64,000 bases of DNA from a virus. The notes below the pieces were generated by a model that had not been told where the DNA came from, did not search any database, and was given only the letters and a program-made list of their open reading frames with translations. This document shows positions 36,989 through 62,613 of the stretch, piece by piece (position 1 is the stretch's first letter; each line of letters begins with the position of its first letter). Both the position numbers and the translations under genes were made by a program. Where the stretch lies: the IMG/VR virus record IMGVR_UViG_3300008448_000038, positions 17,199-81,198 of that record. The stretch is one strand, 5' to 3'.

Positions 36989-36995
36989 GAGACTT

Positions 36996-37876: not shown

Positions 37877-37880
37877 GTAA

Positions 37881-39196: not shown

Positions 39197-39199
39197 ATA
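39192..39199 (+). promoter_or_regulatory. late-promoter-like box before regA
   Basis: CCTAAATA, the same octamer as before gp23, overlaps the gp62 stop region. A GGAG Shine-Dalgarno (39212-39215) precedes the regA ATG at 39221. Confidence 0.3.
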
Positions 39200-39220
39200 A
39201 ATTGGTATTATGGAGTTTTT

Positions 39221-39625: not shown

Positions 39626-39912
39626 TGAATATTGTTAATGATTATGATTTGTATGATAAAGCAAGAAATATGCTTTATGAAGGTCTTGCCAAGTACGACA
39701 TCAAAAAACCAATCTTCATCTATGTGGATAATGAAATTGGCGATGCAGTTTTCAATATAAAAAAGAATAAACATAATTTTGAATTGGCTATTATTCTTAG
39801 CAATGAAGCTGTAGGTTTTGCTAAAGAAAATCTTATTGAAATTTTTAATAGATTTGATATGATTATTACTGACGATCCAGTAATAAACGAATATTCGTAT
39901 TGGGCTAAATAA
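39625..39912 (+). CDS. hypothetical protein at the start of the glycan module
   Basis: 95 residues beginning in TAATG, overlapping the regA stop. Mixed alpha/beta look, with F-I-Y-V-D-N-E-I-G, L-A-I-I-L-S-N-E-A and I-T-D-D-P near the end. No family recognised. The next gene starts in its stop (TAATG), so it is translated with the glycosyltransferases. Confidence 0.55.
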   Translation: MNIVNDYDLYDKARNMLYEGLAKYDIKKPIFIYVDNEIGDAVFNIKKNKHNFELAIILSNEAVGFAKENLIEIFNRFDMIITDDPVINEYSYWAK

Positions 39913-41254: not shown

Positions 41255-42099
41255 TATTTACAAATGATAATTTAAGACCAAATCCAACTTACCCAACCTA
41301 CCCACCTTACCATACTGGTGATTATATTGAAGATTATTTCTATAAGTGGGTATTTAATAAATCAGATGAATTGCGTAGAGATTATATCGCTATAAGTTGG
41401 ACAACTTTGTATTGCGAAAATAAAGATCAGGGAATTCAAGCGTTTTTAAATAATCTGGATAATAATAGAAGATATTTTACTATTTGTCAGCATGATGATG
41501 CTCCAAGACATAGATTGCCAGATGATACTTTAATTTTTTCTCTTTCTAGGTCTCGGATTGATAACCCATATATTAAAAATCCAATTCCTATACCAGCTGT
41601 TTGTTCAGCTTTGCCCAAACAGCCTGTTTTGGAAAAAGATATTTTTGCTTCCTTTGTTGGATCAATAACTCATCCAATTAGATATAGTTTATATGAGATA
41701 TGCAAGTCTCAAAAAGATTTCTATTTTTCAGGACAAGCATGGTCCCCTTCAATAAGTAAAAATAAAATGGATGAATTTTTGAATATTTCTAATAGAAGTA
41801 AATTTACTCTTTGTCCAAGAGGATATGGAAATACTAGTTTTAGATTATATGAATGTATGCAACTTAATTCAATTCCGGTTTATATTAGTGATGATTTTTA
41901 TTTACCTTGGTCAGACGAATTAGATTGGAATGAATTTTGCGTTATTGTAAAACACGCAGAACTCAATAATTTGCCTTCTATATTAAAAAATATTTCTGAT
42001 GAACAATATAATTCAATGCTTAATAAAATTAAAGTCATTTACAATAATTATTTCTCATTGGATGGTGTTTGTAAAAATATTAAAGATCGCATAATATGA
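41251..42099 (+). CDS. exostosin-family-like glycosyltransferase
   Basis: 282 residues from the ATG at 41251, which overlaps the previous stop as ATGA; an upstream in-frame start at 41233 is less likely. C-terminal motif F-T-L-C-P-R-G-Y-G-N-T-S-F-R-L-Y-E-C-M-Q-L-N-S-I-P-V-Y-I-S-D is the hallmark of exostosin (GT47) domains. The upstream S-F-V-G-S-I-T-H-P-I-R-Y fits the same fold. Eukaryotic relatives build heparan sulfate and viral and bacterial ones decorate glycans; the specific sugar here is unknown. Confidence 0.7.
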   Translation: MIFTNDNLRPNPTYPTYPPYHTGDYIEDYFYKWVFNKSDELRRDYIAISWTTLYCENKDQGIQAFLNNLDNNRRYFTICQHDDAPRHRLPDDTLIFSLSRSRIDNPYIKNPIPIPAVCSALPKQPVLEKDIFASFVGSITHPIRYSLYEICKSQKDFYFSGQAWSPSISKNKMDEFLNISNRSKFTLCPRGYGNTSFRLYECMQLNSIPVYISDDFYLPWSDELDWNEFCVIVKHAELNNLPSILKNISDEQYNSMLNKIKVIYNNYFSLDGVCKNIKDRII

Positions 42100-42800
42100 A
42101 ATTAAGACTAATAAATTATCTGTGGCTATCTGGCAATGAAATCAGAGATAAAGAAGTTTTAGATTCTATAAATTTTAATATTGAGTCAAATTTATTTGAT
42201 GAAATATTGATATTTACTGAACAGACTTCAAAATTAGATATTAAAATACAACGTAATGTCACTTTAACCAATATAACTTTAAGACCTACATTTCAATATT
42301 TGTTTGATTATGTAAATGCATTTCCACAAAATAACTATGTAAATATTTTGTCTAATAGTGACATTTTATTTAATGAGTCTATATTGTTAGCTAAGAATAT
42401 GGATTCTAATGATTTTTATTGTATAACTAGGCACGAATTAGACGGAAATTTATTCAGTGATTCTAGGATTGACGATTCCAAATTCAAAGCATCACAAGAT
42501 GTATGGATTTGGAAGGGTGATTGTAAATTGTATGATTGTGATTTTTATCTGGGATTCCCCGGATGCGATAATGCTTTAGCATGTAAAGCAAAGCATATAG
42601 GATATAAAGTCAAAAATCCATGCTTAAGCATCAAAGTTACACATAATCATAAAAGTGATATTAGATCGGGAGATTCAAATTTAAGTAATTATAAAAATCA
42701 TTTGAATATTATATTCTTAATTTCTCCCACCCATTTAGATGAACCTACATACTGTGCTTATTATAATGAACCATCTAAGGAATATTATATTTTGGATTAA
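42096..42800 (+). CDS. putative glycosyltransferase
   Basis: 234 residues. Start overlaps the previous gene (ATATGA). The motif Y-V-N-I-L-S-N-S-D-I-L-F-N at residues about 80-92, followed by a R-H-E-L-D-G-N-L-F segment, D-V-W-I-W-K-G and G-F-P-G-C-D-N-A-L-A near residue 152, matches a family of putative phage/bacterial glycosyltransferases in which S-N-S-D acts like a DxD. V-T-H-N-H follows near residue 187. Exact activity unknown. Confidence 0.55.
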   Translation: MKLRLINYLWLSGNEIRDKEVLDSINFNIESNLFDEILIFTEQTSKLDIKIQRNVTLTNITLRPTFQYLFDYVNAFPQNNYVNILSNSDILFNESILLAKNMDSNDFYCITRHELDGNLFSDSRIDDSKFKASQDVWIWKGDCKLYDCDFYLGFPGCDNALACKAKHIGYKVKNPCLSIKVTHNHKSDIRSGDSNLSNYKNHLNIIFLISPTHLDEPTYCAYYNEPSKEYYILD

Positions 42801-42802
42801 TT

Positions 42803-43528
42803 ATGAAAAAAATATTATTTGTTATTGCTAACTATAAAGATTCTAGACAAGCATTTTTTGAAAATTTCTTTTCGCCCCTCAATAAAAAATTTGCTGATAT
42901 CCATGGATATGAATATATCGTATCTAAAGGTGGAGACTTATTTCGAAATAATCCAACTTGGTGGAAGTTTACACTAGTAAGAGATATGATTAATGATGGT
43001 ACTCTATCTGTAGGAGATGAATTGTTACATCTAGATGCAGATATGAGAATTGATAAGTTCGATAAGGATTATCCCTGCGATAAATCGTTCTCAGTGTGTA
43101 TTGATAATGGTAATTCATTTTGTATGGGGTCGTATAAAATGAAAATTAATGATTGGTCTATAAATTTAGTAAATAATATTTTAGACGAGTCTTTGTGGCA
43201 AAAGTGCAGATATGAACCACATTGGCAAGCTTTTAGAGAACAAGCCGCCTTTTATACTCTTTGTGGTATAATTCCGCACAGCTGGATACCGTTTTTAGAT
43301 CTGCCTAATTATGGCTGGCATCAGAATAAAACAGATAATACCAAGTATTCTATAGAGGAATTGCACGCGAACGTACAAGTATTAGGGCCAGAATGGAATA
43401 CTACTCTTTTAGAAGAAGAAGCTGAAATAACAGATCCAGCTCTTATGCAATACAATATTACTAAATCTAAGAAAGCAGATACTATAATAAGACATTTTGC
43501 TGGTGGACAGCAGTGGAGAAATGTATGA
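42803..43528 (+). CDS. GT34-like glycosyltransferase
   Basis: 241 residues. Motif L-L-H-L-D-A-D-M at 74-81 (D78-A-D80 as DxD), preceded by P-T-W-W-K-F-T-L-V-R and followed by E-Q-A-A-F-Y-T-L-C near residue 150 and a C-terminal R-H-F-A-G-G-Q-Q-W. This order is that of the galactosyl/xylosyltransferase GMA12/MNN10 (GT34) family. It is 2 nt after the previous gene and overlaps the next ATG by 4 nt. Confidence 0.65.
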   Translation: MKKILFVIANYKDSRQAFFENFFSPLNKKFADIHGYEYIVSKGGDLFRNNPTWWKFTLVRDMINDGTLSVGDELLHLDADMRIDKFDKDYPCDKSFSVCIDNGNSFCMGSYKMKINDWSINLVNNILDESLWQKCRYEPHWQAFREQAAFYTLCGIIPHSWIPFLDLPNYGWHQNKTDNTKYSIEELHANVQVLGPEWNTTLLEEEAEITDPALMQYNITKSKKADTIIRHFAGGQQWRNV

Positions 43529-44514
43529 AAATTCTTTATATTACAACTGATGAAAATAAAAATCTACATCAAGTGGATCGCGCTCAAGGGGATTATATGG
43601 AAAATTTAATCCTTCTTGGACTGCGTAAATTACTTAAAGAAAACTGTGTAGAATACCCAAGAAAGAAAATATTATACCATGATTTTACCTCAGTTCCAAA
43701 AAGTTCATTGCATGGTCGTGGATTCTCGCTATACCACGAACCAATGGAAGAAATACCCGACCACTGTAGAGATTTAACAAATCAAACTTTTGATGTTATT
43801 TTGTATGGAACTGCATTTGCATGGGGAATGCAAGATATTCCAGAATTGGAAAAAAAATGTAAATTAAAATTTTATATTGATGGCCACGATTTATATGGCC
43901 ATGCAACAGCAGGAAATTATATCAAATATAATAATGAGGTTTTGATTGGCAATCAAGCTAAACCTTCATTTAAAGAACAATTAATATTAGAAGAGCCGCA
44001 TGTTTATCCCACTGGAGTCGGTTTACCAGAAAGTAGAATAATGCCTATTGATTTAAGCAAAAAGTGTCAATTATATCAAAAAGCATATCCGCGAATGGCT
44101 AATTTTGAAATTCCAAACGAATTTAATAGAGCGCATCATATTTTTACTGACGAAGAAGCTTACTATGAAGATATGGCAAAATCTTGGTTTGGTTTATCAT
44201 GTAGACGCGGAGGGTGGGACGCAATGAGAAATTATGAAATTATAGCAGCTGGATCAGTTTTGTTGTTTAGAGATCATTATTTAAAACCAAGATATTGTTC
44301 TCCCGGAGATTGTCCAGCTATTTCGTACTCTACAAAAGAAGAGTTAAATCAAATTATGTCAACTTTGGTAGTTAATAATAAACCCACTGATGCTTATATA
44401 AATAAGTTGAACGAACAACGAGTGTGGTTAGTAAACAACGCTACATGCGTTGCTAGAGCTAAATTTGTCTTAAGTGTATTGGAGAAATATATTAATGGCG
44501 AAATTAAATATTAA
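43525..44514 (+). CDS. putative glycosyltransferase (GT-B-like C-terminus)
   Basis: 329 residues from ATG 43525, preceded by GGAGAA. The N-terminal M-K-I-L-Y-I-T-T-D is a Rossmann-like start. F-D-V-I-L-Y-G-T near residue 90, then F-Y-I-D-G-H-D-L-Y-G-H. A C-terminal W-D-A-M-R-N-Y-E-I-I-A-A-G-S-V-L-L-F-R-D resembles the E-x-(I/M)-A-A-G-x-x-(P/L) donor-binding motif of GT-B enzymes. Probably a GT-B fold glycosyltransferase; not assigned to a CAZy family. Confidence 0.55.
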   Translation: MKILYITTDENKNLHQVDRAQGDYMENLILLGLRKLLKENCVEYPRKKILYHDFTSVPKSSLHGRGFSLYHEPMEEIPDHCRDLTNQTFDVILYGTAFAWGMQDIPELEKKCKLKFYIDGHDLYGHATAGNYIKYNNEVLIGNQAKPSFKEQLILEEPHVYPTGVGLPESRIMPIDLSKKCQLYQKAYPRMANFEIPNEFNRAHHIFTDEEAYYEDMAKSWFGLSCRRGGWDAMRNYEIIAAGSVLLFRDHYLKPRYCSPGDCPAISYSTKEELNQIMSTLVVNNKPTDAYINKLNEQRVWLVNNATCVARAKFVLSVLEKYINGEIKY

Positions 44515-45244
44515 TGAATTCACAATTTGCTTACATTGTGGATGCAATAGAGAATTGGTTGACAATCAAATCAAAGATCTAAAGCCCCTTGAATCTACTT
44601 ATAAAGTACATTGGAATAACCGAATAGATCGGTATCCAAAAATGTATCCCACATATTCACAATTAATAAATCATTCTGTTGTTACTTCTCCCACTGAATG
44701 GGTCATTTTAATAAATGACAGATGCTCCCCAAAACCACAAGAAATAGAAAAAATGATTCATCTTTTGGAAAATGGATTTGGATGTGTTTTGTTTTATGGT
44801 GTTGGTTTTATGGGATTTTCAAAAGAATTAATAAGACAAATTGGTTGGTGGGATGAAAGATTTATTCAGGGATGGGAAGATAGAGATTGGGTTTGGAGAC
44901 TGCAAATAAACGATATAGCTCTTTATGAAAGTTGCGAAGCTGAATATGATTATAGCTGGAGATCACCCTTAAATCATCCAGCAGGACAATGCAGAGAAGA
45001 ACATTTAAAATTAAAATATTATTTTGATTCAAATATAGTTTATGTAAATTTACCAGAAGAAAAATATCAACATTGGGATCTATTTATTGGAGATTCAAAA
45101 GAAGAAATAAAAAATTCATGGATGGCTTGGAATAAATCTATATTAAATTTAGGATATGATAAACCAAATGGTGGATTTGCAGGATCGCAATATTTTAAAA
45201 ACAGAAAGATAATAAAAAACTATGAAAATGATAAAAATAACTGA
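44495..45244 (+). CDS. glycosyltransferase family 2-like
   Basis: 249 residues from ATG 44495. GGAGAA at 44481-44486 precedes this start, which is inside the previous gene. W-V-I-L-I-N-D-R-C-S-P-K near residue 69 (an N-D-R in place of a canonical DxD), then G-F-M-G-F-S-K-E-L-I and G-W-W-D-E-R-F-I-Q-G-W-E-D-R-D-W-V-W-R, which is the G-W-(E/G)-D-x-D acceptor motif of GT2 galactosyltransferase-like enzymes. A GalNAc/Gal-type GT2 is the best guess. Confidence 0.6.
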   Translation: MAKLNINEFTICLHCGCNRELVDNQIKDLKPLESTYKVHWNNRIDRYPKMYPTYSQLINHSVVTSPTEWVILINDRCSPKPQEIEKMIHLLENGFGCVLFYGVGFMGFSKELIRQIGWWDERFIQGWEDRDWVWRLQINDIALYESCEAEYDYSWRSPLNHPAGQCREEHLKLKYYFDSNIVYVNLPEEKYQHWDLFIGDSKEEIKNSWMAWNKSILNLGYDKPNGGFAGSQYFKNRKIIKNYENDKNN

Positions 45245-45845
45245 TAATTTGACTATGGTAGATGAATCGCATTTAGGTGGATTTTTAATAGAAAGTGATC
45301 CAGCTACTTTTACACCAAATTTATGGAAACATTTGTGTGAAACATATAAAATTGAAAAGGTAATTGATGTTGGTTGTGGAATGGGATATGCTATAAAAGA
45401 ATTTTTAAAATATTCTAAAAAAGTAGTTGGAATAGATGGATCAGAATATGTTAAAAATAATAGTTCTTTTTCAGATAATATTGTACTCCATGATTTTACA
45501 AAAGGAAAATATTCATTAGATGAAATCTATGATCTCTGCTGGTCTTCAGAATTTTTAGAGCATGTAGAAGAAAAATATATGGACAATTATTTTTCTGTTT
45601 TTATGAAAGCAAAATATTGTGCTGTTACTTACGCAAATAAAGGACAATCTGGCCACCACCATGTAAATTGCCAAGATGAAAAATATTGGATTGAAAAATT
45701 TAAACAATATGGATTTAAATTTTTAAAAGATGATACAGAAATATTAAAAAATAAGGCATACGAAGACGCATTATCTTACAATCCACTATATAATGATAAT
45801 CATTTTTATAACAGAGGTTTGTTTTTTGAAAACATTAAACTATGA
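45222..45845 (+). CDS. SAM-dependent methyltransferase (class I)
   Basis: 207 residues with S-adenosylmethionine-binding motif I V-I-D-V-G-C-G-M-G at 47-55, V-V-G-I-D-G-S motif II, and W-S-S-E-F-L-E-H-V near residue 107. The H-H-H-V-N segment is unusual. It is inside the glycan cluster and probably O- or C-methylates a sugar or glycan. Its 5' end overlaps the previous gene by 23 nt; either of two ATGs (45222 or 45228) could be used. Confidence 0.7.
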   Translation: MKMIKITDNLTMVDESHLGGFLIESDPATFTPNLWKHLCETYKIEKVIDVGCGMGYAIKEFLKYSKKVVGIDGSEYVKNNSSFSDNIVLHDFTKGKYSLDEIYDLCWSSEFLEHVEEKYMDNYFSVFMKAKYCAVTYANKGQSGHHHVNCQDEKYWIEKFKQYGFKFLKDDTEILKNKAYEDALSYNPLYNDNHFYNRGLFFENIKL

Positions 45846-46843
45846 ATAATACCAAAAATATTTTAATAACTGGTGGTCTCGGTTTCATCGGTGCACATTC
45901 AATTGAAAAATGGAAAAATGAAGGTTGGGAAATAACCGTTATTGATAATCTTTCCTCTAATGCAATTGAAACAAACCACCCATTAACAGAAAACGTTAAA
46001 CTAATAATCCAAGATATTACAAAGGCTGATTGGAAAACTCTTCCAAAATTTGATCTCATTCTACACTTGGCATCCCCCGTAGGACCACTGGGTGTACTAA
46101 AGCATAGTGGAACAATGGCCCGAATAATTTTAGATGACATATATTCAGTTATACAGGGAGCAAATTATAATAAATGTCCTTTACTTTTTGTCTCTACTTC
46201 TGAAATATATGGCTATAGAGATCATAAAAGCTACCTCCAAGAAAAAGATGACAAAGTACTTCGTGGAGACTTTACTGTTAGAAATGAATATGCTATGGCA
46301 AAATTGTTGTCAGAGATTGTTCTCTCTAATCATGCCAAGATCAATAGTTCTTTTAAATATCAAATTATTAGACCATTCAATGTAACAGGAAAATATCAGT
46401 TACCAGATGGTGGATTTGTGCTTCCTAGATTTGTGGATCAAGCACTAAAGAATCAAGATATTACTGTGTATTATTCAGGTCAACAGTTGCGCGCTTTTAC
46501 ATGGGTTAAAGATATTGTTAATGGCATTTATTTGACATCAATAGCACCCGAAAGCAAATGGAATCAGGAATGGAATATTGGAAATGAACTCAACGAACAA
46601 ACTATTCTTTATCTTGCAGAAAGAGTAAAAGAATTCACAAACAGCAATTCAAAAATTGTACATGTTGATCCAAAAGATCTTCATGGTGCTTTGTTTGCTG
46701 AAGCTCCTGAAAAAATCCCAAATAGTGAAAAAATTAAATCTGAACTCGGGTGGAAGCCAACTAAATACGTTGATGACGTAATACATGAAGTTGTGAATTT
46801 TTATAAAGATAAGATTGATGCAAAAGTTACAAAACATATTTAA
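45842..46843 (+). CDS. NAD-dependent nucleotide-sugar epimerase/dehydratase (SDR)
   Basis: 333 residues. Extended SDR with G-G-L-G-F-I-G at 11-17 (NAD-binding), D-N-L-S-S after strand 2, V-S-T-S-E-I-Y-G near 117, and catalytic Y-A-M-A-K at 150-154. R-P-F-N-V-T-G-K-Y-Q near 180 and D-I-V-N-G-I follow, as in UDP-glucuronate decarboxylase or GDP-mannose-dehydratase-like enzymes. It makes a modified nucleotide sugar, product unknown. Start overlaps the methyltransferase gene (ATGA). Confidence 0.8.
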   Translation: MNNTKNILITGGLGFIGAHSIEKWKNEGWEITVIDNLSSNAIETNHPLTENVKLIIQDITKADWKTLPKFDLILHLASPVGPLGVLKHSGTMARIILDDIYSVIQGANYNKCPLLFVSTSEIYGYRDHKSYLQEKDDKVLRGDFTVRNEYAMAKLLSEIVLSNHAKINSSFKYQIIRPFNVTGKYQLPDGGFVLPRFVDQALKNQDITVYYSGQQLRAFTWVKDIVNGIYLTSIAPESKWNQEWNIGNELNEQTILYLAERVKEFTNSNSKIVHVDPKDLHGALFAEAPEKIPNSEKIKSELGWKPTKYVDDVIHEVVNFYKDKIDAKVTKHI

Positions 46844-47438
46844 AAAAATAAGTCCGGGATTCTTTTTCGAAGCAGGAGCCAATAATGGCGTTGATGAAAG
46901 CAACACTTTGTTTTTGGAATTGAATGGATGGGATGGTATTTTAGTTGAACCAAATCCAATAAAATACAAAGAATGCTGCCACAATAGAAAAGTAAAATCA
47001 CTACACGGTGCGCTAGTTTCTAGTGATTATAAAGGCTCTACTATTAGTGGTAATTTTTTACGAAACGATAGAAATAGTTTGATGTGTTCAATATTTGATA
47101 TACCAGAGTACTTTTCAGAACACCAAAGACAAGAAGTATACGGAAAAATAGCTGAAGGTTCAGTAGAAGTACCAGCCTTTACATTAGAATCTATATTTGA
47201 TACGAACAATATTGAACAAGTAGATTTTTTATCTTTAGATCTAGAAGGCTACGAAGTAGCAGCATTAACTGGATTAAATTTTGATAAGATAAAGCCCTCA
47301 TACATATTGATCGAAACCGCAAATAATCCCAAATATCAACAATATACTTTGGATTTTTTGACTGCAAAGGGATATAAGTATTTTGAAAAAATTTCTGGTA
47401 ATGACGATCTTTTTATATTAAATGAAAGTATTTTATGA
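46818..47438 (+). CDS. FkbM-family methyltransferase
   Basis: 206 residues from ATG 46818; the preceding TTG at 46815 is a poorer start. F-F-F-E-A-G-A-N-N-G-V-D-E-S-N-T near the N-terminus and a later F-L-S-L-D-L-E-G-Y-E-V-A-A-L-x-G match the FkbM family (SAM-dependent O-methyltransferases). It is inside the glycan cluster, overlaps the SDR gene by 26 nt and may O-methylate a sugar, as FkbM-like enzymes do in bacterial polysaccharides. Confidence 0.8.
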   Translation: MQKLQNIFKKISPGFFFEAGANNGVDESNTLFLELNGWDGILVEPNPIKYKECCHNRKVKSLHGALVSSDYKGSTISGNFLRNDRNSLMCSIFDIPEYFSEHQRQEVYGKIAEGSVEVPAFTLESIFDTNNIEQVDFLSLDLEGYEVAALTGLNFDKIKPSYILIETANNPKYQQYTLDFLTAKGYKYFEKISGNDDLFILNESIL

Positions 47439-48142
47439 AAATTATTTCTCCGTGTTTTACACATAACAGAGCTTTTGCAAATCCATTAATAGACAGTCTT
47501 AAAAAGTATTCACCTGAATACGCCGATAATCTTATTTTATATACAGATGGTTCTGTAAATACAGATTTTTATCATACTAAAATGTTTCATGCATGTGAAA
47601 CATTAAAAAAGATAAATGATGAAATTGTCATTTTAGTGGATGCATTTGATGTTTTAGTTAATAAACCTCTTTCAGATGTTGAAGAAGAATTCAAATCACA
47701 TAATTGTAAATTATTAATATCGGCAGAGGCAAATTGTTTTCCATTCAAACAATATGAATCATTTTTAGCTTCAAAATCCAATACAAGATTAAAATTTCCA
47801 TGTGCAGGATGTTGGATTGGATATAGAGAATATATGATTGAATTGTTTGAAAGTCCTCTTTCTGTACAAAATCATATGAATTGGAGAAGATACACAGACC
47901 AAGGTTTCATGGAAACAATATATTATAATTCTTTTAGCGATCCTTATTTTTCAGTAAAAATTGATACTGATGCAAAAATTTTCATCAATACATTTTTGTT
48001 AGAACCTGAAATTGATTTTTCCATAAATCCAACTACAAAACAATTGACGTACAAGGAAACAAATAATATTCCTTATTTTATTCATTTTAATGGTGATGGT
48101 AAAGCGCATATGCCGCTTTTTAATGTAAAATATTGTGCTTGA
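47435..48142 (+). CDS. PLOD/GT25-like glycosyltransferase
   Basis: 235 residues. V-I-L-V-D-A-F-D-V-L at 65-74 (D69-A-F-D72) and the preceding K-M-F-H-A-C-E-T-L, followed by I-S-A-E-A-N-C-F-P near residue 90 and C-A-G-C-W-I-G-Y, resemble the N-terminal glycosyltransferase domain of procollagen lysyl hydroxylase (PLOD) and related viral proteins. I-H-F-N-G-D-G-K sits near the C-terminus, fitting the metal/donor motif of that domain. The collagen-like fibre 5 kb downstream makes this suggestive, but no lysyl hydroxylase is seen. Confidence 0.6.
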   Translation: MKIISPCFTHNRAFANPLIDSLKKYSPEYADNLILYTDGSVNTDFYHTKMFHACETLKKINDEIVILVDAFDVLVNKPLSDVEEEFKSHNCKLLISAEANCFPFKQYESFLASKSNTRLKFPCAGCWIGYREYMIELFESPLSVQNHMNWRRYTDQGFMETIYYNSFSDPYFSVKIDTDAKIFINTFLLEPEIDFSINPTTKQLTYKETNNIPYFIHFNGDGKAHMPLFNVKYCA

Positions 48143-48149
48143 TTTAATA

Positions 48150-48177
48150 TTGACTAATTGCGAATAATTTTTATAAT
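48150..48177 (+). promoter_or_regulatory. sigma70-like promoter before the fusion enzyme, predicted leaderless
   Basis: -35 TTGACT (48150-48155), 16-nt spacer, -10 TATAAT (48172-48177), then exactly 6 nt to the ATG at 48184. No Shine-Dalgarno. It is one of the two best consensus matches in the window. Confidence 0.7.
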
Positions 48178-48183
48178 ATAAAA

Positions 48184-50760
48184 ATGAATTATAGACAAAA
48201 AATTGTAATAACTGGCGGTCTTGGATATATCGGAACTGAACTATGTAAACTATATTCAGGAGAGGCTAGATTCAAAAATATTGTTATTCTTGACACTAGA
48301 TTTGTTTCTGAAAGAGTTAAACAACTTAGAGATTGGGGAATTGATTTCCATCAAGTCTCAATCTTAGATAAAGATAATCTACAATCGCATCTAGCTGATG
48401 CAGATGTTGTATTTCATCTTGCTGGAATTACTGATGTAGCTTATGTAAAAACCGAATCAGATCCAGAAAAGGATAGTCTTATCACGAAAACTGCTGTGGA
48501 AGGTACAAGAAATGTTATAAACAGCGTTTCTAAGAATTGTAAAATTGTTTTCCCATCAACCCATGTAGTTTATGAGGGGTTTGCTGAGACTAAACTTGAT
48601 ATATTAGAAACAGAGCCTCCATGCCCAGTATTAACTTATGCCGCTGGAAAAGTACAGTCAGAAGAGGATTTTAAAAATTCTGATCTAAACTACGTTATTC
48701 TTCGTCTTGCATCAGTATATGGATATTCAACCGATACAATGCGTCTAGGAATAATGCCAAATCTATTTTCTAAGATTGCATCCCAAAATGGGACTATTAA
48801 GCTTTTTTCTGGTGGCGTACAAGTAAAAAGCTTAGTTCCATTACAAGATGTGGTTCGTTGTATGAAGTATATGGCGGAAAATAATACAATAAGCAGAGAA
48901 ATTTTCCATCTCGCAAAAGAAACTACAACTGTAAAACAAGTTGCAGAACTTTGTAAAGAAATCAATCCATCTCTGCAAATAGTAGAAACTAATGATGAAA
49001 TTCCAAATTTGGGATATACAATATCAAATGCTAAACTACTAGCCACAGGATTTACTTTTAGATATTCTTTAAAGGAATGTTTAAAAGAAATGATTTGCAA
49101 TTGGTCTAAGAAGGATATAAATCCTGCTCTTGAATATATTGATCGTGGTGGAAAGGAGTTTATCGATGCTCGGGGAAAGATTTTGAATTATGAACTGACT
49201 GAGCCTATTAATCTTATCGGATATATCGAATCAAAGAAAGGCACGGTCCGCGCTAATCATTATCACCCAATACAAGAGCAGAAATGTCTGTTGGTAAAGG
49301 GTCAATATATTAGCGTTATTAAAGATTTGTCAATTCCGGATGCACCTATAGAAACCCGTGTTATAAATGAGGGTGATATAGCAATTATTAAACCGAATGT
49401 AGCTCACGCCATGATCTTTACGGAGGATTCTATATTTTTAAATCTGGTTCGTGGTGAAAGAGAACATGCAAATTACGGCATATCGCATACTATTCCCTAT
49501 ATTCTTGTCGATGAAGAAATGAGAATTAAGTTATTATCTTCATACAAAATAACATGTAGATGCTGTGGCAATAAACATCTTGAACGAGTTATTTCTTTGG
49601 GAGAATCTCCATTAGCAAATAATCTGAAAGATTCGATTGATGCTAAAGAAGACAAATATCCCCTTGAAATGAATTATTGCCCTAAATGCCATAATTGTCA
49701 GCTTTCAGTGTCTGTACCACCAGAAAAAATGTTTGATAATTATCTTTATGTTTCATCAACTTCTCCAATTTTTAGAAAACATTTCGAAGATGCGGCTAGA
49801 GAATATATTGATGAATTTAATCTAAATTCATCTACTTTAGTGGTTGATATAGGAAGTAATGATGGTATAGCTTTAAAGCCTTTGGCCGAAAATGGAATTC
49901 CAGTTATAGGAATAGAACCAGCCAAGAATGTCGCAGAAATTGCAAATACAAACGGCATTCGTACTTTAAATAAGTATTTTGATGACGAGGCCGTAGAGTC
50001 TTTGTTGTCTATAGGTAAGGCAAAACTTATTACTGCCTCTAATATGTTTGCTCATTCTGATAAACTAGCGGAAATAGCAAATAATGTTTTTAAAGTTTTA
50101 GATGACGATGGTACATTTGTAATTGAAGTGCAGTATTTAAAGGATACATTGAACGATGTTACCTTTGATAACATTTATCACGAACATTATAATTATTGGA
50201 GTGTTATTTCTTTAAATAATTTCTTTAATAATTTGGGATATGTTGTTTATAAAGTAAATCACATTAATACTCATGGTGGATCGATTCGGGTTTACATCGC
50301 TAAGAATCCGAAAACTATTGATGCAAGCGTCCATGATTTTATTGATGCAGAAAAAATATTTGGTTTAACAAATTTTCAGACATACGCTATTTTTGCGAAA
50401 AAAATAGAAACTATTAAAAATAATGTTATTTCAAACATAAAAATGTTGAAGTCAAAATATGGAAGTATTTGTGCTTATGGTTCACCAGCAAAAGCAACAA
50501 CGGCTTTAAATTATTTTAATATAGGCAAAGATTATTTTGATTATACTATCGATGATAATGCATTAAAGAATTTAAAGTTTATTCCCGGCGTAAATATTCA
50601 AATTCAAAATCGTGAATATTTTAAATCTAATAAATCTAAAGTTGTAATAGTATTAGCTTGGAATTTCTTCGAATCTATTAAAAATAATAATAAAGAATAT
50701 ATTGATAATGGCATTGTTTTCTTGAATATTAAAAATCTAGAAAATTTAACTGATTTATGA
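48184..50760 (+). CDS. three-module deoxysugar enzyme: SDR + cupin + C-methyltransferase
   Basis: 858 residues. Module 1 (1 to about 310): extended SDR with G-G-L-G-Y-I-G at 11-17 and catalytic Y-A-A-G-K at 152-156. Module 2 (about 330-440): cupin of the WxcM/dTDP-sugar-isomerase-like type, with H359, H361 and E365 as a likely metal/substrate triad and a G-D-I-A-I-I-K-P-N-V-A-H-A stretch. Module 3 (about 455-858): sugar C-methyltransferase with zinc-knuckle Cys (C458, C461, C499, C502), SAM motif V-V-D-I-G-S-N-D-G at 553-561, E-H-Y-N-Y at 667-671 (TcaB9-type catalytic His) and the C-terminal Y-G-S-P-A-K-A at 765-771. Together they could epimerise/isomerise and C-methylate a nucleotide deoxysugar. 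Such steps are usually separate proteins. Confidence 0.8.
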   Translation: MNYRQKIVITGGLGYIGTELCKLYSGEARFKNIVILDTRFVSERVKQLRDWGIDFHQVSILDKDNLQSHLADADVVFHLAGITDVAYVKTESDPEKDSLITKTAVEGTRNVINSVSKNCKIVFPSTHVVYEGFAETKLDILETEPPCPVLTYAAGKVQSEEDFKNSDLNYVILRLASVYGYSTDTMRLGIMPNLFSKIASQNGTIKLFSGGVQVKSLVPLQDVVRCMKYMAENNTISREIFHLAKETTTVKQVAELCKEINPSLQIVETNDEIPNLGYTISNAKLLATGFTFRYSLKECLKEMICNWSKKDINPALEYIDRGGKEFIDARGKILNYELTEPINLIGYIESKKGTVRANHYHPIQEQKCLLVKGQYISVIKDLSIPDAPIETRVINEGDIAIIKPNVAHAMIFTEDSIFLNLVRGEREHANYGISHTIPYILVDEEMRIKLLSSYKITCRCCGNKHLERVISLGESPLANNLKDSIDAKEDKYPLEMNYCPKCHNCQLSVSVPPEKMFDNYLYVSSTSPIFRKHFEDAAREYIDEFNLNSSTLVVDIGSNDGIALKPLAENGIPVIGIEPAKNVAEIANTNGIRTLNKYFDDEAVESLLSIGKAKLITASNMFAHSDKLAEIANNVFKVLDDDGTFVIEVQYLKDTLNDVTFDNIYHEHYNYWSVISLNNFFNNLGYVVYKVNHINTHGGSIRVYIAKNPKTIDASVHDFIDAEKIFGLTNFQTYAIFAKKIETIKNNVISNIKMLKSKYGSICAYGSPAKATTALNYFNIGKDYFDYTIDDNALKNLKFIPGVNIQIQNREYFKSNKSKVVIVLAWNFFESIKNNNKEYIDNGIVFLNIKNLENLTDL

Positions 50761-51671
50761 AATATCTTGTAACGGGTGGCTGTGGTTTTATCGGATCTAA
50801 TCTTGTCGATAAACTAATCGAACAAGGACACGAAGTAAATGTCATTGATAATCTTTCTTCTGATGCACATGAAGAATTTTATTTCAATGAAAAAGCTTCA
50901 TATAATCATTTTAATGCAACTGATTATACGATGACGAGAAAGATGTATCAAAATGTTGATACAATTTTTCACATAGCAGCTGAAGCTAGAATTCAAAATT
51001 GTATCGAAGATCCTCTTCGGGCATTTGAATCGAATATAATGGGTCTTTCCACAGTTCTTGAACTAGCTAGAAAAGAAAGAGTCAAGCAAGTCATATTTTC
51101 ATCTACATCATCCATTTATGGATTAAAAAACAAAGCTCCGATGCACGAATCAATGGAATCGGATTGTCTCAATGCTTATTCCTTGAGTAAATTGCACGGA
51201 GAAGATATTTGTAGAATGTATAGTAAATTATATGGGGTTAATACTTTTTGTTTTAGATACTTTAATGTCTATGGCAATAGACAACCAATTAAAGGTCAGT
51301 ATTCACCTGTAATTGGGGTATTTATGCGCCAAAAACAAAACGGACAAGAACTAACCATTGTTGGTGATGGAGAACAAAGAAGAGATTTTGTCAATGTTTC
51401 TGATGTAGTCGATGCAAATATTCTAATTGCAAATTCTGATATAGAAAAGAATGGACAAGTTGCCAATGTCGGTACTGGAATCAATTATTCTGTAAATGAG
51501 ATAGCACAGATGATTGGCGGTAAGACAAAATATCTTGATCCTAGAATCGGGGAAGCTAGAGTCACTTTAGCCGACGCTACATATCTTAGATCGCTTGGAT
51601 GGTCTCCTAAGATTGATGTGAAGGATTGGATCATTCAAGAATCTATTAGAAGGAATCTTGTCAATATTTAA
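50757..51671 (+). CDS. UDP-glucose 4-epimerase-like SDR
   Basis: 304 residues. G-G-C-G-F-I-G-S at 7-14, F-H-I-A-A-E-A-R near 71, S-S-T-S-S-I-Y-G near 115, catalytic Y-S-L-S-K at 141-145 and R-Y-F-N-V-Y-G-N-R-Q near 167 are all hallmark extended-SDR (GalE/WbpP-like) elements. V-G-D-G-E-Q-R-R-D-F-V-N-V-S-D is the typical substrate loop. It epimerises a UDP-sugar at C4 or converts a related nucleotide sugar. Its ATG overlaps the fusion gene stop (ATGA). Confidence 0.85.
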   Translation: MKYLVTGGCGFIGSNLVDKLIEQGHEVNVIDNLSSDAHEEFYFNEKASYNHFNATDYTMTRKMYQNVDTIFHIAAEARIQNCIEDPLRAFESNIMGLSTVLELARKERVKQVIFSSTSSIYGLKNKAPMHESMESDCLNAYSLSKLHGEDICRMYSKLYGVNTFCFRYFNVYGNRQPIKGQYSPVIGVFMRQKQNGQELTIVGDGEQRRDFVNVSDVVDANILIANSDIEKNGQVANVGTGINYSVNEIAQMIGGKTKYLDPRIGEARVTLADATYLRSLGWSPKIDVKDWIIQESIRRNLVNI

Positions 51672-52923: not shown

Positions 52924-54651
52924 ATGAAATTCTCAGATATCTTCAAAAAAGAACACAAAATAAATCTTGCTGGCTTATCCCAGCAAGATGTTCTTTTATT
53001 GAGAGAAGATGTTTCTGAGTTTAAAACTGGTACTAAATTTACAGTCAATCCTAAAAATAAGAGTGATAAATCTGTAGAAATAGGCGATGGTCTTACCGAA
53101 TTACATCTAGTTGATGAAAAGGGTAAAACTGTCCTATTTTCAGGAAATTACTCAAAAATTGCCTCATTATTTACAATTTTAGAGGAAAAAACACCTGAAC
53201 CTCAAATTATAGTTGTTGAAAAAACAATTGTTAATGAAATAAAAAAGAAACAAGTAATAGAAGGCCGCGAAGGCCCAATAGGACCACAGGGGCCGAGGGG
53301 TGATGTCGGGATCCGAGGAGAACTTGGGCCTGTTGGGGCCAAGGGAGAGCAGGGAGAACGCGGTGAGGTTGGAGAACAGGGTCCGCAGGGCATTGAAGGT
53401 CCAATTGGTCCTAGAGGCCCAATAGGCCCACAAGGCCCGAAGGGCGATAAGGGTGATAAAGGCGACCAAGGAATTGCCGGGGAGTTAGGCCCGATAGGCC
53501 CACAAGGCCCCAAAGGCAACCAAGGAGAGGCTGGAGAGCCGGGTCTTGACGGCCCACAAGGAGAAAGAGGTCCAATAGGTCCCCAAGGCCCCAAGGGCGA
53601 TAGAGGCGATCATGGATTACCCGGACCAAGAGGCCTAATGGGTTCACAAGGACCAAAGGGAGAGCGTGGAGAACCCGGAGAACAGGGTCCAGAAGGTCCA
53701 GAGGGTCCGATGGGCCAAGATGGTCTTCCCGGGGAGAAGGGCGATAAGGGAGATCCCGGTGTCGTTTCTGCCAGTTTCCCTTTAGTCTATGATAAAAAGT
53801 CAGCAAACATAAGTTTTGATACTAAATTCTTAGATGATAAAATTACTAAGATTGCTGTAGATCCACTTCTTGCTAGCGGTGGTAGCGGTCTTGGTGTTAA
53901 AGAAAATGGGTCAATACTTGTAAAGACGGGTGTTGATTATTTGGATTTTAGAGGTTCCATTGATCTTACTAGACAGGGTAGAACTGTTATAGTAACTGGA
54001 ACTAGCTCTGGATCAGGAACTGGTATAACTGGCCCTACAGGACCCACTGGCCCAGCGGGAGCTACGGGTAATGTCGGTGCTACTGGGGACATTGGACCCA
54101 CTGGTGCTACCGGAGTCACTGGTGCAGATGGCTCAACCGGGCCGATTGGACCGACAGGTGCTACCGGAGTCACTGGTGCAGATGGTTCAACTGGTCCTAT
54201 GGGGCCAACAGGTGCTACTGGGGTTACTGGATCTATTGGACCTACAGGGCCAACTGGACCATCTGGTATTACTAACATAAATGGTATTACTTTATCACCA
54301 ATAACTATACGAGAAGGTGATGGTATCTTGTTAGGTACTAATCTTTCTACTAAAACAATTTCTATATCGAATGAATGGGGACCATTAGAAGATTCTGCGG
54401 CTACCCTTGATGATTATATTTTAGTAAGTTTAAACGGATTAATAGGAAGTCCTTCATTATTTGCTGGTTCTGGTATAACTTTTTCTGTTGGCGCGCAGGG
54501 AATTACAATTTCATCGACGCTTCCTAAATTTACAGAAGGAGTTACTGCTCCAGCAAACCCTATAGCAGGAGATAGATGGTATAATACTGATGATGGCATA
54601 ATCTACACTTCAGTCACAAAATCAGGTTCACAAATTTGGATAGTTGGATGA
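52924..54651 (+). CDS. collagen-like tail fibre protein
   Basis: 575 residues. Residues 1-113 form a mixed N-terminal domain. Collagen block 1 (114-279) is nearly perfect Gly-X-Y with many G-P-x, G-x-K-G-D and G-E-x triplets. A non-collagen spacer (280-366) follows, then collagen block 2 (367-448) rich in Gly-X-Thr (G-P-T, G-A-T, G-V-T). The C-terminal 125 residues end in [17 protein letters not shown], the small aromatic module also found in two other virion proteins here. Collagen stalks trimerise and are used as fibres in phages. Start ATG follows the previous stop by 1 nt, with AAGGTG (52916-52921) as Shine-Dalgarno. Confidence 0.8.
54103..54230 (+). repeat. 54-nt tandem repeats encoding Gly-X-Thr collagen units
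   Basis: A 54-nt unit (18 residues, [14 protein letters not shown]-x-G-P-T) occurs at 54103 and 54157 with a 29-nt identical core, and a degenerate third copy starts at 54211. It lies within collagen block 2 of the fibre gene. Confidence 0.85.
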
Positions 54652-54664: not shown

Positions 54665-57556
54665 ATGCCGATAAATTTCCCGAATTCACCAAGCATTGGA
54701 GCTACCTACGACTACGAAGGTATTCATTATATTTACAATGGTGTAGGCTGGGTCAACAAAAGTATTTTTGGTATTTCAGCTGGAACTAACATTAGCTTTA
54801 CTAATTACAATGGTACTGGTCCTATAGTTATATCTACAACGAGTTCTGGCGGTATAACAAGTGCAGTGACTTCCTTTAATGGTCTTACTGGAGATGTGGT
54901 TGGTGTATCTAGTTTTAATGGTTACACTGGTGGGGTTACTGGTTGGGCGTATTACAATGATGGTATTAATAGCGGTTTAGATACCGACTTAATACAGGGA
55001 ATATCAGGGCAAAGATTTGTTGAAAATCTTCAGACCGGACTTTTATATGGGGGTCTTCTTCAAGTAAATGCTGGAAACTCTGCTTATTTTGATGTTTCCG
55101 CTGGGGTTGGAATTATTTCTACAGCAGGCGCATCTTTAACTGCATATCCAACCCCGTCGTTAAGTTATATAACATGGAGTTCGTTTACTGGAGTGACTGT
55201 AACTGGTATTACTTCTGATGAAGAAACTTGGATTTCGATTAATTCTTCTGGAAATTTAGTACAACAAAACACTAAATGGTTGGATAGCCAGTTCGATAAT
55301 TCAATTCCTCTAGGCGTATTGATTCATCCAAACAACACAACCATAAACTTCGCAGTTGCCATTCCCCATGTGGCATACGGTCAACCTTCACAGCTAGATC
55401 CATTTGTAAGAGCATTCGGGCCAATCAAAATTTCTGGCCACGAAATAAGCGCAAACGGAGCCAATTTACAAGTAAATAAGAGCACTGGTGCTGCATATCT
55501 GATTGGTAGGAATTACGCTACAAATCCCAGCAGTCCAAACGTAGTAGAAGATACAAATGCTACTCCAATCAGCACGATGTATCGATACTATAGAGATGGT
55601 TCTGGTAAATTTACAGTAGTTACAAATTCATCCATAGATCCTAGTAAATATGATGATGGAACTGGAACTTTAAATACAGTACCCGGTGGTCAATATACCA
55701 TTCAGAGACTTTTTTTCCTACCCGGTGTTCCAACTGTTCTTGCATCATACTATGGAAGAGAACTATACAATTCTATAGAAACTGCACAAGCAAACATTCC
55801 GTTTGAACAATTTACTGAAGATGATTCTACTGCTAGCCTTGGTGTGTTTGCAGGATATTTGATTGTTAAGAGTGGAGCAACACAATTAAATAACACCGCT
55901 GATGCTAAATTCATCAACTCTGGAATTTTTAGAAATCTTTCTAACATCGGTGGCGGTGGAGTTGCCGCAACTAGCCTTGACGATTTGAGTGATGTCACTA
56001 TAACTTCAGCAGCAAACGGCCAAGTACTTAAATATAGTAGCGGGGTGTGGGTTAATGATTCAGTTTCAAATCTCAACTTAGTATCGGCAGCTGTTGCAGG
56101 GTCTGGTATCAATGTTTCCGGTGCTACTGGATCTGTTACTATTACCAATACTGGTGTCTTGAGTTTTAATGGCAATACAGGAGCAGTTCAAGGCGTTTCG
56201 TCCATTAACGGAAGCACTGGTGCAATTACCAATGTTGCATTTACGAATGTGGCACAGACCTTTAGTGCTTTGCAAAGTTTCAGTGTTGGTGTTAGTGCAG
56301 GATATGTTGATACCGATACCATAAAAAGTGATTTATTGACTATAGATCCTTTTAATTTGTTTCCTGATTCTACAGGAATTAGATTATATCAAGATAATGG
56401 AATTTCCCAATATTATACTACTATAAAGGGAGCAGGACCAAATGCATCTGCAAACCAAACTATTACTTTACCTAATGATACTGGCATAGTTGCACTTACT
56501 AAAAATGTAGTAAGTAGTTTTAACGGCAATACAGGAGCAGTTCAAGGTGTATCAGCTGCTGTTGCCGGATCTGGTATTAGCGTATCTGGTGCAACTGGTT
56601 CTGTTACCATTACTAATACTGGTGTCTTGAGTTTTAATGGCAATACAGGAGCAGTTCAAGGTGTATCATCCATTAATGGAAATACTGGTGCGATTACTAA
56701 TGTTGCATTTACGAATGTAAATAATAATTTCAGCGTAACTCAAAACTTTGCACAAGGTCTTACTGCTGCAAATACGGTTGAGTTTTATGCAGATACGAGT
56801 TATTTCTATTCATCAATAAAGGGAAATAGATTCTTAACTGTTTCGCCGGGTGCGCAGAATTTTATAAGTGGTAATGGTGCTTCGTCAATTATTATTAATC
56901 AATCTGCTGGCAATGCAGTTTATATTGGTGATGCTGATATAGCAAACAACGGAACCTATATTCGTGTAGAAGATAATACTTCAGCCATTGCTTTTAATTA
57001 TAATACAACTTCATATACATTCCCAACAACCGTTGGAAGTCCGGGACAAGTTTTAACTACAAATGGATCTAATCCTGCGACCTTGTCGTGGAGTACAGCA
57101 ACGGGATCTGGTGGGGGGGTATCTTCATTCAATGGATTGACTGGAGCTGTGGAAGGAGTATCATCTCTTATTGGGGGTACTGGAATTTCTGTGTCCGGTG
57201 CTACTGGAACTGTAACGGTAACCAATCAGGGTGTAAGAACTTTTAACGGTGCTACTGGAGACATATCATATTCTGGATTAAGTAGATATATTACTAGCAT
57301 TTCAACAAACACAAATGCGGGATCTACTGCTGGTACTGATTTCGTTTACATATGCACGGCGGGTCTTACATTAACCTTACCCACAGCGGCATCAAATACA
57401 AATAGATATTCTGTCAAGAATACAAGTTCATCTGTAGTAAAAGTTTTTACAACATCATCTCAATCTATCGATGGTATAACTCTTGGTTATAATTTGACTA
57501 GACAATATCAAGCAGTTGATTTAGTAAGTGATGGTTCTAATTGGTTTGTAATCTAA
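54665..57556 (+). CDS. large repetitive tail fibre protein
   Basis: 963 residues. N-terminus contains P-S-I-G-A-T-Y-D-Y-E-G-I-H-Y-I-Y-N-G-V-G-W, the same small module as at the end of the collagen fibre. The body has repeats built on S-F-N-G-N-T-G-A-V-Q-G-V-S-S and V-A-G-S-G-I-x-V-S-G-A-T-G-S-V-T-I, a beta-helical or shaft-like layout typical of long fibres. The C-terminus (F-N-G-A-T-G-D-I-S-Y..., S-V-K-N-T-S-S-S-V-V-K-V) resembles fibre tip/intramolecular domains. Probably a receptor-binding fibre; which host glycan is unknown. Confidence 0.75.
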   Translation: MPINFPNSPSIGATYDYEGIHYIYNGVGWVNKSIFGISAGTNISFTNYNGTGPIVISTTSSGGITSAVTSFNGLTGDVVGVSSFNGYTGGVTGWAYYNDGINSGLDTDLIQGISGQRFVENLQTGLLYGGLLQVNAGNSAYFDVSAGVGIISTAGASLTAYPTPSLSYITWSSFTGVTVTGITSDEETWISINSSGNLVQQNTKWLDSQFDNSIPLGVLIHPNNTTINFAVAIPHVAYGQPSQLDPFVRAFGPIKISGHEISANGANLQVNKSTGAAYLIGRNYATNPSSPNVVEDTNATPISTMYRYYRDGSGKFTVVTNSSIDPSKYDDGTGTLNTVPGGQYTIQRLFFLPGVPTVLASYYGRELYNSIETAQANIPFEQFTEDDSTASLGVFAGYLIVKSGATQLNNTADAKFINSGIFRNLSNIGGGGVAATSLDDLSDVTITSAANGQVLKYSSGVWVNDSVSNLNLVSAAVAGSGINVSGATGSVTITNTGVLSFNGNTGAVQGVSSINGSTGAITNVAFTNVAQTFSALQSFSVGVSAGYVDTDTIKSDLLTIDPFNLFPDSTGIRLYQDNGISQYYTTIKGAGPNASANQTITLPNDTGIVALTKNVVSSFNGNTGAVQGVSAAVAGSGISVSGATGSVTITNTGVLSFNGNTGAVQGVSSINGNTGAITNVAFTNVNNNFSVTQNFAQGLTAANTVEFYADTSYFYSSIKGNRFLTVSPGAQNFISGNGASSIIINQSAGNAVYIGDADIANNGTYIRVEDNTSAIAFNYNTTSYTFPTTVGSPGQVLTTNGSNPATLSWSTATGSGGGVSSFNGLTGAVEGVSSLIGGTGISVSGATGTVTVTNQGVRTFNGATGDISYSGLSRYITSISTNTNAGSTAGTDFVYICTAGLTLTLPTAASNTNRYSVKNTSSSVVKVFTTSSQSIDGITLGYNLTRQYQAVDLVSDGSNWFVI
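56147..56661 (+). repeat. 468-nt-spaced direct repeat in the fibre shaft
   Basis: A 47-nt identical block occurs at 56147-56193 and again at 56615-56661 (468 nt, 156 codons apart, in frame), inside a longer similar unit. A third, shorter copy of its core starts near 56518. This may allow repeat-mediated length change of the fibre shaft. Confidence 0.75.
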
Positions 57557-62106: not shown

Positions 62107-62613
62107 ATGGAATCACTAGGAATTTTTAAGTTACATCCCACGGTCATGAACCCGTCTCTTGCTACAGCAAATTCGGCCTGTGTTGATGTCTATGCGTTCA
62201 TTCAAAATAAAGAAATCTCAGTCTATGATCGGTACAATAATAAAAGTACTATTAAGACTGACGAGAAATCAGTCTCCATTCGCATTGGACCCAAGGAAAG
62301 AATCCTAGTCCCCACAGGAATAATTCTTGACATTCCAAAGCACTTCTCAGTGCGTATGCATCCTCGCTCTGGTCTTGCGATCAAGAAGGGTCTGGCTCTG
62401 GTCAACTGCGAAGGCGTAATCGACTGCGACTATGTGGAAGAACTAATGATTCCGCTAGTCAACACAAGCGATATTTCGTATGATATCGGTCATCAAGAAC
62501 GAGTTGCCCAAATGGAACTTGTTCGTACTGAACATTTTGTTTATCATCATATCTCTGAAAGACCAAGTATAAAGACAGATAGAAGCGGTGGCTTCGGGAG
62601 CACAGGCGAATGA
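62107..62613 (+). CDS. dUTP diphosphatase
   Basis: 168 residues, with the family motifs in order: S-A-C-V-D-V-Y (motif 1, near 23), P-R-S-G-L-A (motif 2, 86-91), G-V-I-D-C-D-Y (motif 3, 103-109), E-R-V-A-Q-M (motif 4, 131-136) and G-F-G-S-T-G (motif 5, 162-167). Trimeric dUTPase hydrolyses dUTP to dUMP and pyrophosphate, limiting uracil incorporation. It is longer than a minimal dUTPase because of an insert between motifs 1 and 2. Overlaps the next gene by 4 nt. Confidence 0.9.
   Translation: MESLGIFKLHPTVMNPSLATANSACVDVYAFIQNKEISVYDRYNNKSTIKTDEKSVSIRIGPKERILVPTGIILDIPKHFSVRMHPRSGLAIKKGLALVNCEGVIDCDYVEELMIPLVNTSDISYDIGHQERVAQMELVRTEHFVYHHISERPSIKTDRSGGFGSTGE

What the first reader, a model, noticed from the sequence alone, without database searches (positions are those of the whole stretch)
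52924..54651. Collagen-like fibre with Gly-X-Thr block may be the acceptor of the phage glycans
Collagen block 2 is rich in G-(P/A/V)-T. In Bacillus BclA, GPT collagen repeats are O-glycosylated on Thr with methylated deoxysugar glycans (established). Here the glycan module with methyltransferases and deoxysugar-type enzymes ends 1 nt before the fibre gene, and one transferase (47435) resembles the PLOD collagen-glycosylating domain. A phage that makes and attaches glycans to its own collagen stalk would be a new virion-glycosylation system.
Basis: inference. Interest (0 to 1): 0.8.

Follow-up and report, generated by a model that had tools for sequence, protein, structure and literature searches.

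The report
Phage collagen fibre with linked glycosyltransferase
An uncultured T4-like phage carries a collagen-like tail-fibre gene directly behind a gene for a peptide-sugar-attaching enzyme whose bacterial relatives repeatedly sit beside the same kind of collagen, so the phage may coat its own fibre with sugars, although no sugar on the fibre has been shown.

Summary
The fibre gene is real (52924-54651, 575 aa; Pfam collagen 1.4e-39). Block 2 has Thr in 19 of 28 Y positions, block 1 in none of 56.

Against it: the sugar cassette (39912-51671, with the PLOD-like GT) is a portable unit. Relatives carry it elsewhere in the genome. Two close sibling phages keep the fibre (89%) and most of its Thr with a wholly different island lacking PLOD. 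No hydroxylase turned up, and PLOD chemistry targets hydroxylysine, not Thr.

For a modified version: the gene ending 1 nt before the fibre (51693-52922) is not part of that cassette. It is a conserved GT2+TPR enzyme. Its confident AlphaFold model matches SunS/ThuS peptide glycosyltransferases first (E 2.7e-15). It has the architecture and gene position of C. difficile SgtA, shown in the literature to put GlcNAc on Thr of a GPT collagen. Of 80 bacterial chromosomal relatives, 38 have a Gly-X-Thr collagen within 6 kb, versus 0 of 108 control regions. Phage islands encode no flippase- or polymerase-like membrane protein in 323 protein clusters.

Best reading: candidate fibre O-glycosylation with a constant initiating enzyme and swappable sugar islands (about 0.45). 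Phage-level linkage is incomplete; nothing is shown biochemically.

The parts
52924..54651 (+). collagen-like fibre protein, 575 aa: N-terminal domain (1-113), collagen block 1 (114-281), middle (282-366), Gly-X-Thr block 2 (367-450), C-terminal domain
   Evidence: PF01391 1.4e-39
54022..54273 (+). DNA of Gly-X-Thr collagen block 2 (28 triplets, 19 with Thr in Y), candidate O-glycan acceptor
   Evidence: Thr codons conserved against L019
51693..52922 (+). TPR-GT2: GT-A family 2 glycosyltransferase with C-terminal TPR domain; candidate initiating peptide O-glycosyltransferase; conserved between regA and dUTPase in relatives
   Evidence: PF00535 8.4e-12 and TPR_17; PDB sequence hits GmaR, SunS, ThuS-like 7msk; AlphaFold pLDDT 93.1, top Foldseek hits SunS/ThuS; DADD motif (D96, A97, D98, D99) invariant in 50 sequences
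39912..51671 (+). portable sugar cassette: about 13 tightly packed genes (GTs, methyltransferases, SDR sugar enzymes), no TM-like segments
   Evidence: same cassette at another site in L006, L007, L009
47435..48142 (+). PLOD-type glycosyltransferase domain (no hydroxylase domain), cassette member
   Evidence: PF25342 9.2e-20; LH3 6wfv 3.6e-4
46815..47438 (+). FkbM-type methyltransferase
   Evidence: PF05050 3.9e-19
45222..45845 (+). SAM methyltransferase
   Evidence: PF08241 3.5e-7
48184..50760 (+). fusion of SDR (epimerase/dehydratase) and zinc-type C-methyltransferase with a cupin-like middle (the cupin reading is inference)
   Evidence: PF01370 4.5e-25, PF08421 4e-17, PF08484 8.1e-38
45842..46843 (+). 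SDR nucleotide-sugar enzyme
   Evidence: PF01370 6.5e-33
50757..51671 (+). SDR nucleotide-sugar enzyme (epimerase type)
   Evidence: PF01370 1.6e-54
40574..41254 (+). nucleotide-diphospho-sugar transferase
   Evidence: PF03407 8.4e-16
41233..42099 (+). exostosin GT47-type transferase
   Evidence: PF03016 8.2e-24
39221..39625 (+). RegA-type translation repressor, core gene upstream of the island
   Evidence: phrog_242 1.1e-51
54665..57556 (+). second fibre-type protein
   Evidence: phrog_16641 tail fiber 4.3e-16
62107..62613 (+). dUTPase-like core gene used here as the downstream anchor (name from sequence, not from a family search)
   Evidence: conserved position in relatives

Best explanation
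The locus is a phage protein-glycosylation module built around a constant enzyme. TPR-GT2 (51693-52922), a SunS/SgtA-type peptide glycosyltransferase, puts the first sugar on Ser/Thr of the collagen-like fibre made by the next gene, in this phage mainly on the Gly-X-Thr block. The soluble, swappable island upstream then makes and adds further, partly methylated sugars in the cytoplasm before virion assembly. Shown: the genes, the fold match, the conserved Thr, the bacterial linkage of this enzyme family to Gly-X-Thr collagens, and the swapping of islands around a constant TPR-GT2 and fibre. Inferred: that the fibre is the acceptor, that the island extends the same glycan, and what the glycan does (adsorption, stability or masking).
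For: AlphaFold model pLDDT 93.1; first six PDB structural matches are SunS/ThuS peptide glycosyltransferases (E 2.7e-15 to 4e-13 over 290-405 columns), next best 2.5e-6. Sequence hits in PDB: GmaR (5.6e-9), SunS, 7msk. Published precedent: C. difficile SgtA has GT-A plus TPR domains, its gene lies immediately upstream of bclA3, and it adds beta-O-GlcNAc to Thr of GPT collagen peptides (PMC7157674). Of 80 bacterial chromosomal relatives 38 have a Gly-X-Thr collagen ORF within 6 kb, 24 within 400 bp, across about eight phyla; controls from the same genomes: 0 of 38 fixed-position regions and 0 of 70 neighbourhoods of other GT2 genes. 46 of 50 such genomes have PF01391 over cut-off versus 3 of 14 control genomes. 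TPR-GT2 1 nt from the fibre. Thr codons of block 2 conserved while the island is replaced. No island protein in 323 clusters has 6 or more TM-like segments, versus 2 of 11 genes in the E. coli O16 cluster, which points to a cytosolic acceptor. The 156 kb relative G038, whose TPR-GT2 is not next to a fibre, carries a Gly-X-Thr collagen elsewhere.
Against: TPR-GT2 sits between regA and dUTPase in many phages with no fibre or island there; 19 of 35 complete spans have no collagen and 11 of 16 collagen-bearing spans have fewer than 5 GXT. From the other side, most viral Gly-X-Thr collagens have no such enzyme nearby: 12 of 106 versus 3 of 77 for Gly-X-Gln collagens, p = 0.10. Two records (77 and 46 kb, partial) have TPR-GT2 but neither collagen nor epimerase. 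It falls far below the SunS equivalog cut-off (34 versus 350 bits), so substrate cannot be read from family membership. Bacterial loci are not phylogenetically independent. A recombinant phage collagen from E. coli prophages is stable without glycosylation (PMC3368898). No biochemical data.
Confidence: 0.45

Rival explanations
1. The island, and perhaps TPR-GT2, remodels the host cell's surface polysaccharide during infection (superinfection exclusion or receptor masking). The fibre is an ordinary, unmodified receptor-binding stalk that merely shares a hypervariable host-recognition region with the sugar genes.
For: This is the published reading for pelagimyophage islands, where GTs and fibres share a host recognition cluster (PMC7029224). 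Fibre genes and sugar genes vary at two neighbouring insertion sites around conserved core genes, so adjacency alone means little. Most viral GXT collagens have no nearby TPR-GT2.
Against: No flippase-, polymerase- or ligase-like membrane protein in 323 island protein clusters, so the phage would depend fully on host membrane steps. The constant enzyme's fold matches are peptide glycosyltransferases and its bacterial relatives cluster with collagens.
Confidence: 0.27
2. TPR-GT2 and the island glycosylate a virion protein other than this collagen fibre (for example capsid, tail or another fibre). This explains why the enzyme is kept in phages whose collagen has no GXT or that lack a neighbouring collagen.
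For: TPR-GT2 is conserved between regA and dUTPase regardless of a neighbouring fibre; SunS/GmaR-type enzymes have varied protein acceptors.
Against: The family-wide bacterial linkage is to Gly-X-Thr collagens specifically; here the fibre follows by 1 nt.
Confidence: 0.15
3. One reading: the PLOD-type GT and its cassette glycosylate the collagen fibre directly.
For: PF25342 9.2e-20 and LH3 as sole PDB sequence match; block 1 offers nine Gly-X-Lys triplets; phages with this cassette (G001, G004) have very Thr-rich collagens.
Against: Cassette not linked to the fibre in three of four relatives; siblings with the same fibre lack PLOD; no hydroxylase found to make hydroxylysine; PLOD chemistry does not explain a Thr block.
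Confidence: 0.07
4. The sugars go onto phage DNA (as in T4 glucosylation).
For: T4-like phage; soluble GTs without membrane steps.
Against: No base-hypermodification gene was recognised among the annotated genes, but the 81 kb record is incomplete, so this is weak. Methylated multi-enzyme islands that differ per phage exceed what base glucosylation needs (inference).
Confidence: 0.06

Closest known systems
C. difficile SgtA and BclA3 (PMC7157674)
   Same: GT-A domain plus C-terminal TPRs; gene immediately upstream of a collagen-like gene rich in Gly-Pro-Thr; N-terminal motif TISLCMIV (read from the published primer) versus TITLCMIV here
   Different: Phage tail fibre instead of spore exosporium protein; an adjacent, swappable island of further GTs and methyltransferases; activity here untested
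SunS and ThuS peptide glycosyltransferases
   Same: Closest solved folds over the whole chain
   Different: About 14-18% identity in the Foldseek alignments; far below the SunS equivalog cut-off; known acceptors are bacteriocin peptides
Listeria GmaR flagellin glycosyltransferase
   Same: Best PDB sequence match over the first 100 residues
   Different: Flagellin acceptor; antirepressor role
Mimivirus L230 / animal PLOD and GLT25D1 (PMC9614988)
   Same: PLOD-type GT domain in a virus that also has collagen-like proteins
   Different: L230 is fused to a lysyl hydroxylase and modifies hydroxylysine; no hydroxylase found here
Pelagimyophage host recognition cluster (PMC7029224)
   Same: T4-like marine phages with GTs and fibres in one hypervariable region; collagen repeats among their structural proteins
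   Different: Published as host LPS modification; no TPR-GT2/collagen pairing described in the passages read
Mycobacteriophage virion glycosylation (from memory, paper not held in the library searched)
   Same: Phage-encoded GTs modifying virion proteins
   Different: Other acceptors (capsid, tail), no collagen; not compared here

Membership tests
SunS/ThuS/SgtA-type GT2-TPR peptide glycosyltransferases | N-terminal GT-A family 2 domain | tested here: met
   PF00535 8.4e-12; Foldseek SunS 2.7e-15
SunS/ThuS/SgtA-type GT2-TPR peptide glycosyltransferases | C-terminal TPR helical domain | tested here: met
   TPR_17 3.8e-6; helices 182-408 in the model
SunS/ThuS/SgtA-type GT2-TPR peptide glycosyltransferases | Metal-binding DXD-type motif | tested here: met
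   D96, A97, D98, D99 invariant in 50 sequences
SunS/ThuS/SgtA-type GT2-TPR peptide glycosyltransferases | Gene next to its peptide acceptor | tested here: inconclusive
   1 nt from the fibre here; 38/80 bacterial relatives near GXT collagens, but many phage relatives have no adjacent collagen
SunS/ThuS/SgtA-type GT2-TPR peptide glycosyltransferases | Sugar transfer to Ser/Thr/Cys of a peptide | not testable with these tools
   needs enzyme assay
SunS equivalog (TIGR04195) | Score over the curated cut-off | tested here: not met
   34.3 versus 350 bits
BclA-type glycosylated collagens | Collagen region rich in Gly-X-Thr | tested here: met
   19 of 28 triplets in block 2
BclA-type glycosylated collagens | O-glycan on Thr | not testable with these tools
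   needs mass spectrometry
PLOD/LH3/L230 collagen lysyl glycosyltransferases | PLOD GT domain | tested here: met
   PF25342 9.2e-20
PLOD/LH3/L230 collagen lysyl glycosyltransferases | Lysyl hydroxylase domain or partner gene | tested here: not met
   No hydroxylase domain in the protein; phrog_61 finds only the GT itself in the 81 kb record; record incomplete and only one oxygenase family tested
PLOD/LH3/L230 collagen lysyl glycosyltransferases | Genomic tie to a collagen acceptor | tested here: not met
   Cassette located elsewhere in L006, L007, L009; absent from siblings with the same fibre
Self-sufficient O-antigen/capsule cluster | Flippase and polymerase with many TM segments | tested here: not met
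   0 of 323 island protein clusters with 6 or more TM-like segments versus 2 of 11 in E. coli O16

The most novel reading that the evidence does not exclude
A large group of uncultured T4-like phages carries a dedicated, conserved SgtA-type transferase that O-glycosylates its own collagen-like tail fibres, while exchangeable soluble sugar islands give each phage a different glycan coat on the fibre, in effect a virion serotype system.
Probability: 0.3. Interest if true: 0.85.

Novelty: new variant of a known kind. Interest (0 to 1): 0.62.

Why it matters
If true, it would explain why abundant aquatic T4-like phages carry large, rapidly exchanged sugar-gene islands beside fibre genes: they would decorate the virion rather than the host. 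It gives a single testable enzyme-substrate pair. The bacterial survey also suggests that SgtA-type glycosylation of Gly-X-Thr collagens is a general bacterial system rather than a Clostridioides peculiarity.

Tried and rejected
PLOD GT as the key enzyme: sequence match holds, genomic link to the fibre does not. AlphaFold of the PLOD GT from three sequences failed (pLDDT 36.3), so its active site was not examined. tblastn of the PLOD GT in named phages: no match; genome-contig scan with its alignment: no relative. Strict four-in-a-row GXT pattern over phage records was too strict, missing the window's own block. T4 late promoter core TATAAATA: fewer than chance, no operon evidence. Co-occurrence of collagen and epimerase across 35 records (28/0/5/2, p = 0.035) is confounded by record length and shared region, so it was not used. 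A check restricted to genomes chosen for having a nearby collagen (22 of 24) is circular and was not used. An ad hoc DNA pattern over loci was uninformative. Literature searches for phage virion glycosylation returned nothing directly relevant.

Full report
What is there. The window is bases 17199-81198 of an 81,198-base virus contig. Gene order and a terminase 55% identical to Synechococcus myophages place it among T4-like phages without a close named relative. The fibre gene is at the stated coordinates, with Pfam collagen at 1.4e-39. It has two collagen blocks of different character. Block 1 (56 triplets) is rich in Q, K and R in position Y and has no Thr there; block 2 (28 triplets) has Thr in 19 Y positions.

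The neighbours. Upstream lies a packed run of sugar genes (39912-51671): GTs, an FkbM methyltransferase, another SAM methyltransferase, an SDR/C-methyltransferase fusion and two more SDRs. The gene at 47435 is a PLOD-type GT (PF25342 9.2e-20) and its only PDB sequence match is LH3. The gene that ends 1 nt before the fibre, 51693-52922, is a GT2 transferase with TPRs.

Is the cassette tied to the fibre? No. The PLOD cassette was found in four other contigs. L008 is identical to the window at protein level over the region. In L006, L007 and L009 the cassette sits between the UvsW-side genes and gp55, separated from the fibre region by the replication genes. TPR-GT2 stays behind regA and in front of the collagen genes in the records that reach that far. 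L019 and L021 have TPR-GT2 at 97% and the fibre at 89% identity, but an island of unrelated genes and no PLOD GT in 100 and 113 kb. Across 50 aligned phage TPR-GT2 proteins and 80 loci, the core order is regA - TPR-GT2 - dUTPase. Sugar islands insert before TPR-GT2 and fibre genes after it. In most of L080-L099 neither insertion is present at this site.

What is TPR-GT2? PDB sequence search returned only protein glycosyltransferases: GmaR, SunS and 7msk. The AlphaFold model from 50 sequences is confident (pLDDT 93.1), and the six best Foldseek matches are SunS and ThuS. It is not a SunS equivalog. The closest functional precedent is C. difficile SgtA: GT-A plus TPRs, immediately upstream of bclA3, adding beta-O-GlcNAc to Thr in the Gly-Pro-Thr collagen region (PMC7157674).

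Guilt by association in bacteria. A scan of 84,980 species' genomes with the phage alignment gave 80 best loci in Actinomycetota, Pseudomonadota, Myxococcota, Bacillota, Bacteroidota, Chlamydiota and others. 38 of 80 carry a Gly-X-Thr collagen ORF (at least 8 triplets, at least 40% Thr in Y) within the fetched flanks, and 24 lie within 400 bp. None of 38 fixed-position regions of up to 13 kb from the same genomes, and none of 70 neighbourhoods of other GT2 genes in such genomes (40 of about 12 kb, 30 shorter), has one. Fisher p values (9e-9 and 2e-13) ignore shared ancestry, but the spread over about eight phyla makes a single event unlikely.

The phage side is weaker. Of 35 complete TPR-GT2-to-dUTPase spans, 16 have collagen, 5 of them with five or more GXT and 11 with fewer. 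GXT can move between fibre genes: L023 and L027 have it in the second fibre gene, and G038 has it far from TPR-GT2. Starting from viral GXT collagens, 12 of 106 loci have a TPR-GT2-type ORF, against 3 of 77 for GXQ collagens (p = 0.10). A GXT collagen is therefore not by itself a sign of this enzyme.

Where would the sugars go? The islands have no membrane enzyme of the flippase or polymerase type: 323 protein clusters at 70% identity, none with six or more TM-like segments, against Wzx and Wzy in the 11-gene E. coli O16 control. This favours a cytosolic acceptor but does not exclude feeding the host's own machinery.

Selection on Thr. Between the window and L019, block 2 keeps 16 of 19 Thr, 7 through synonymous changes, although the islands are unrelated. 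If Thr is glycosylated, the first step must be independent of the island, which fits TPR-GT2 as initiator and the island as extender. This division of labour is inference.

Verdict. I put 0.45 on fibre glycosylation by TPR-GT2 with island extension.

Noticed in passing
L078:8001-10435: Two tandem TPR-GT2 paralogues (52% and 42% to the window gene) followed by a collagen ORF with 12 GXT triplets.
   Followed up: no
G045 (contig of L111), about 33660-41900: A 3349-aa open frame made largely of collagen triplets (59 PF01391 matches in the record).
   Followed up: no
L019:6862-7575: The sibling island has a GT25 gene (PF01755 1.1e-18), a family that also includes collagen galactosyltransferases, while the window has a PLOD GT instead.
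   Followed up: partly
L121-L200: TPR-GT2/SgtA-type genes sit beside Gly-X-Thr collagens in about half of 80 bacterial loci over about eight phyla, suggesting a general bacterial collagen glycosylation system.
   Followed up: yes
L009 (G004): The glycan cassette is broken into many short ORFs, most likely frame errors in that contig.
   Followed up: no
window 13242-13249 (-) and 44397-44404 (+): The T4 late-promoter core TATAAATA occurs only twice versus 9.8 expected by shuffling.
   Followed up: no
window 48184-50760: SDR, cupin-like stretch and zinc C-methyltransferase fused in one 858-aa protein (the cupin is read from sequence only).
   Followed up: no
window 36686-36988: A 100-aa ORF inside the replication block ends in a motif like the fibre C-terminus (PSNPDVGQQWLDT versus [13 protein letters not shown]).
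   Followed up: no
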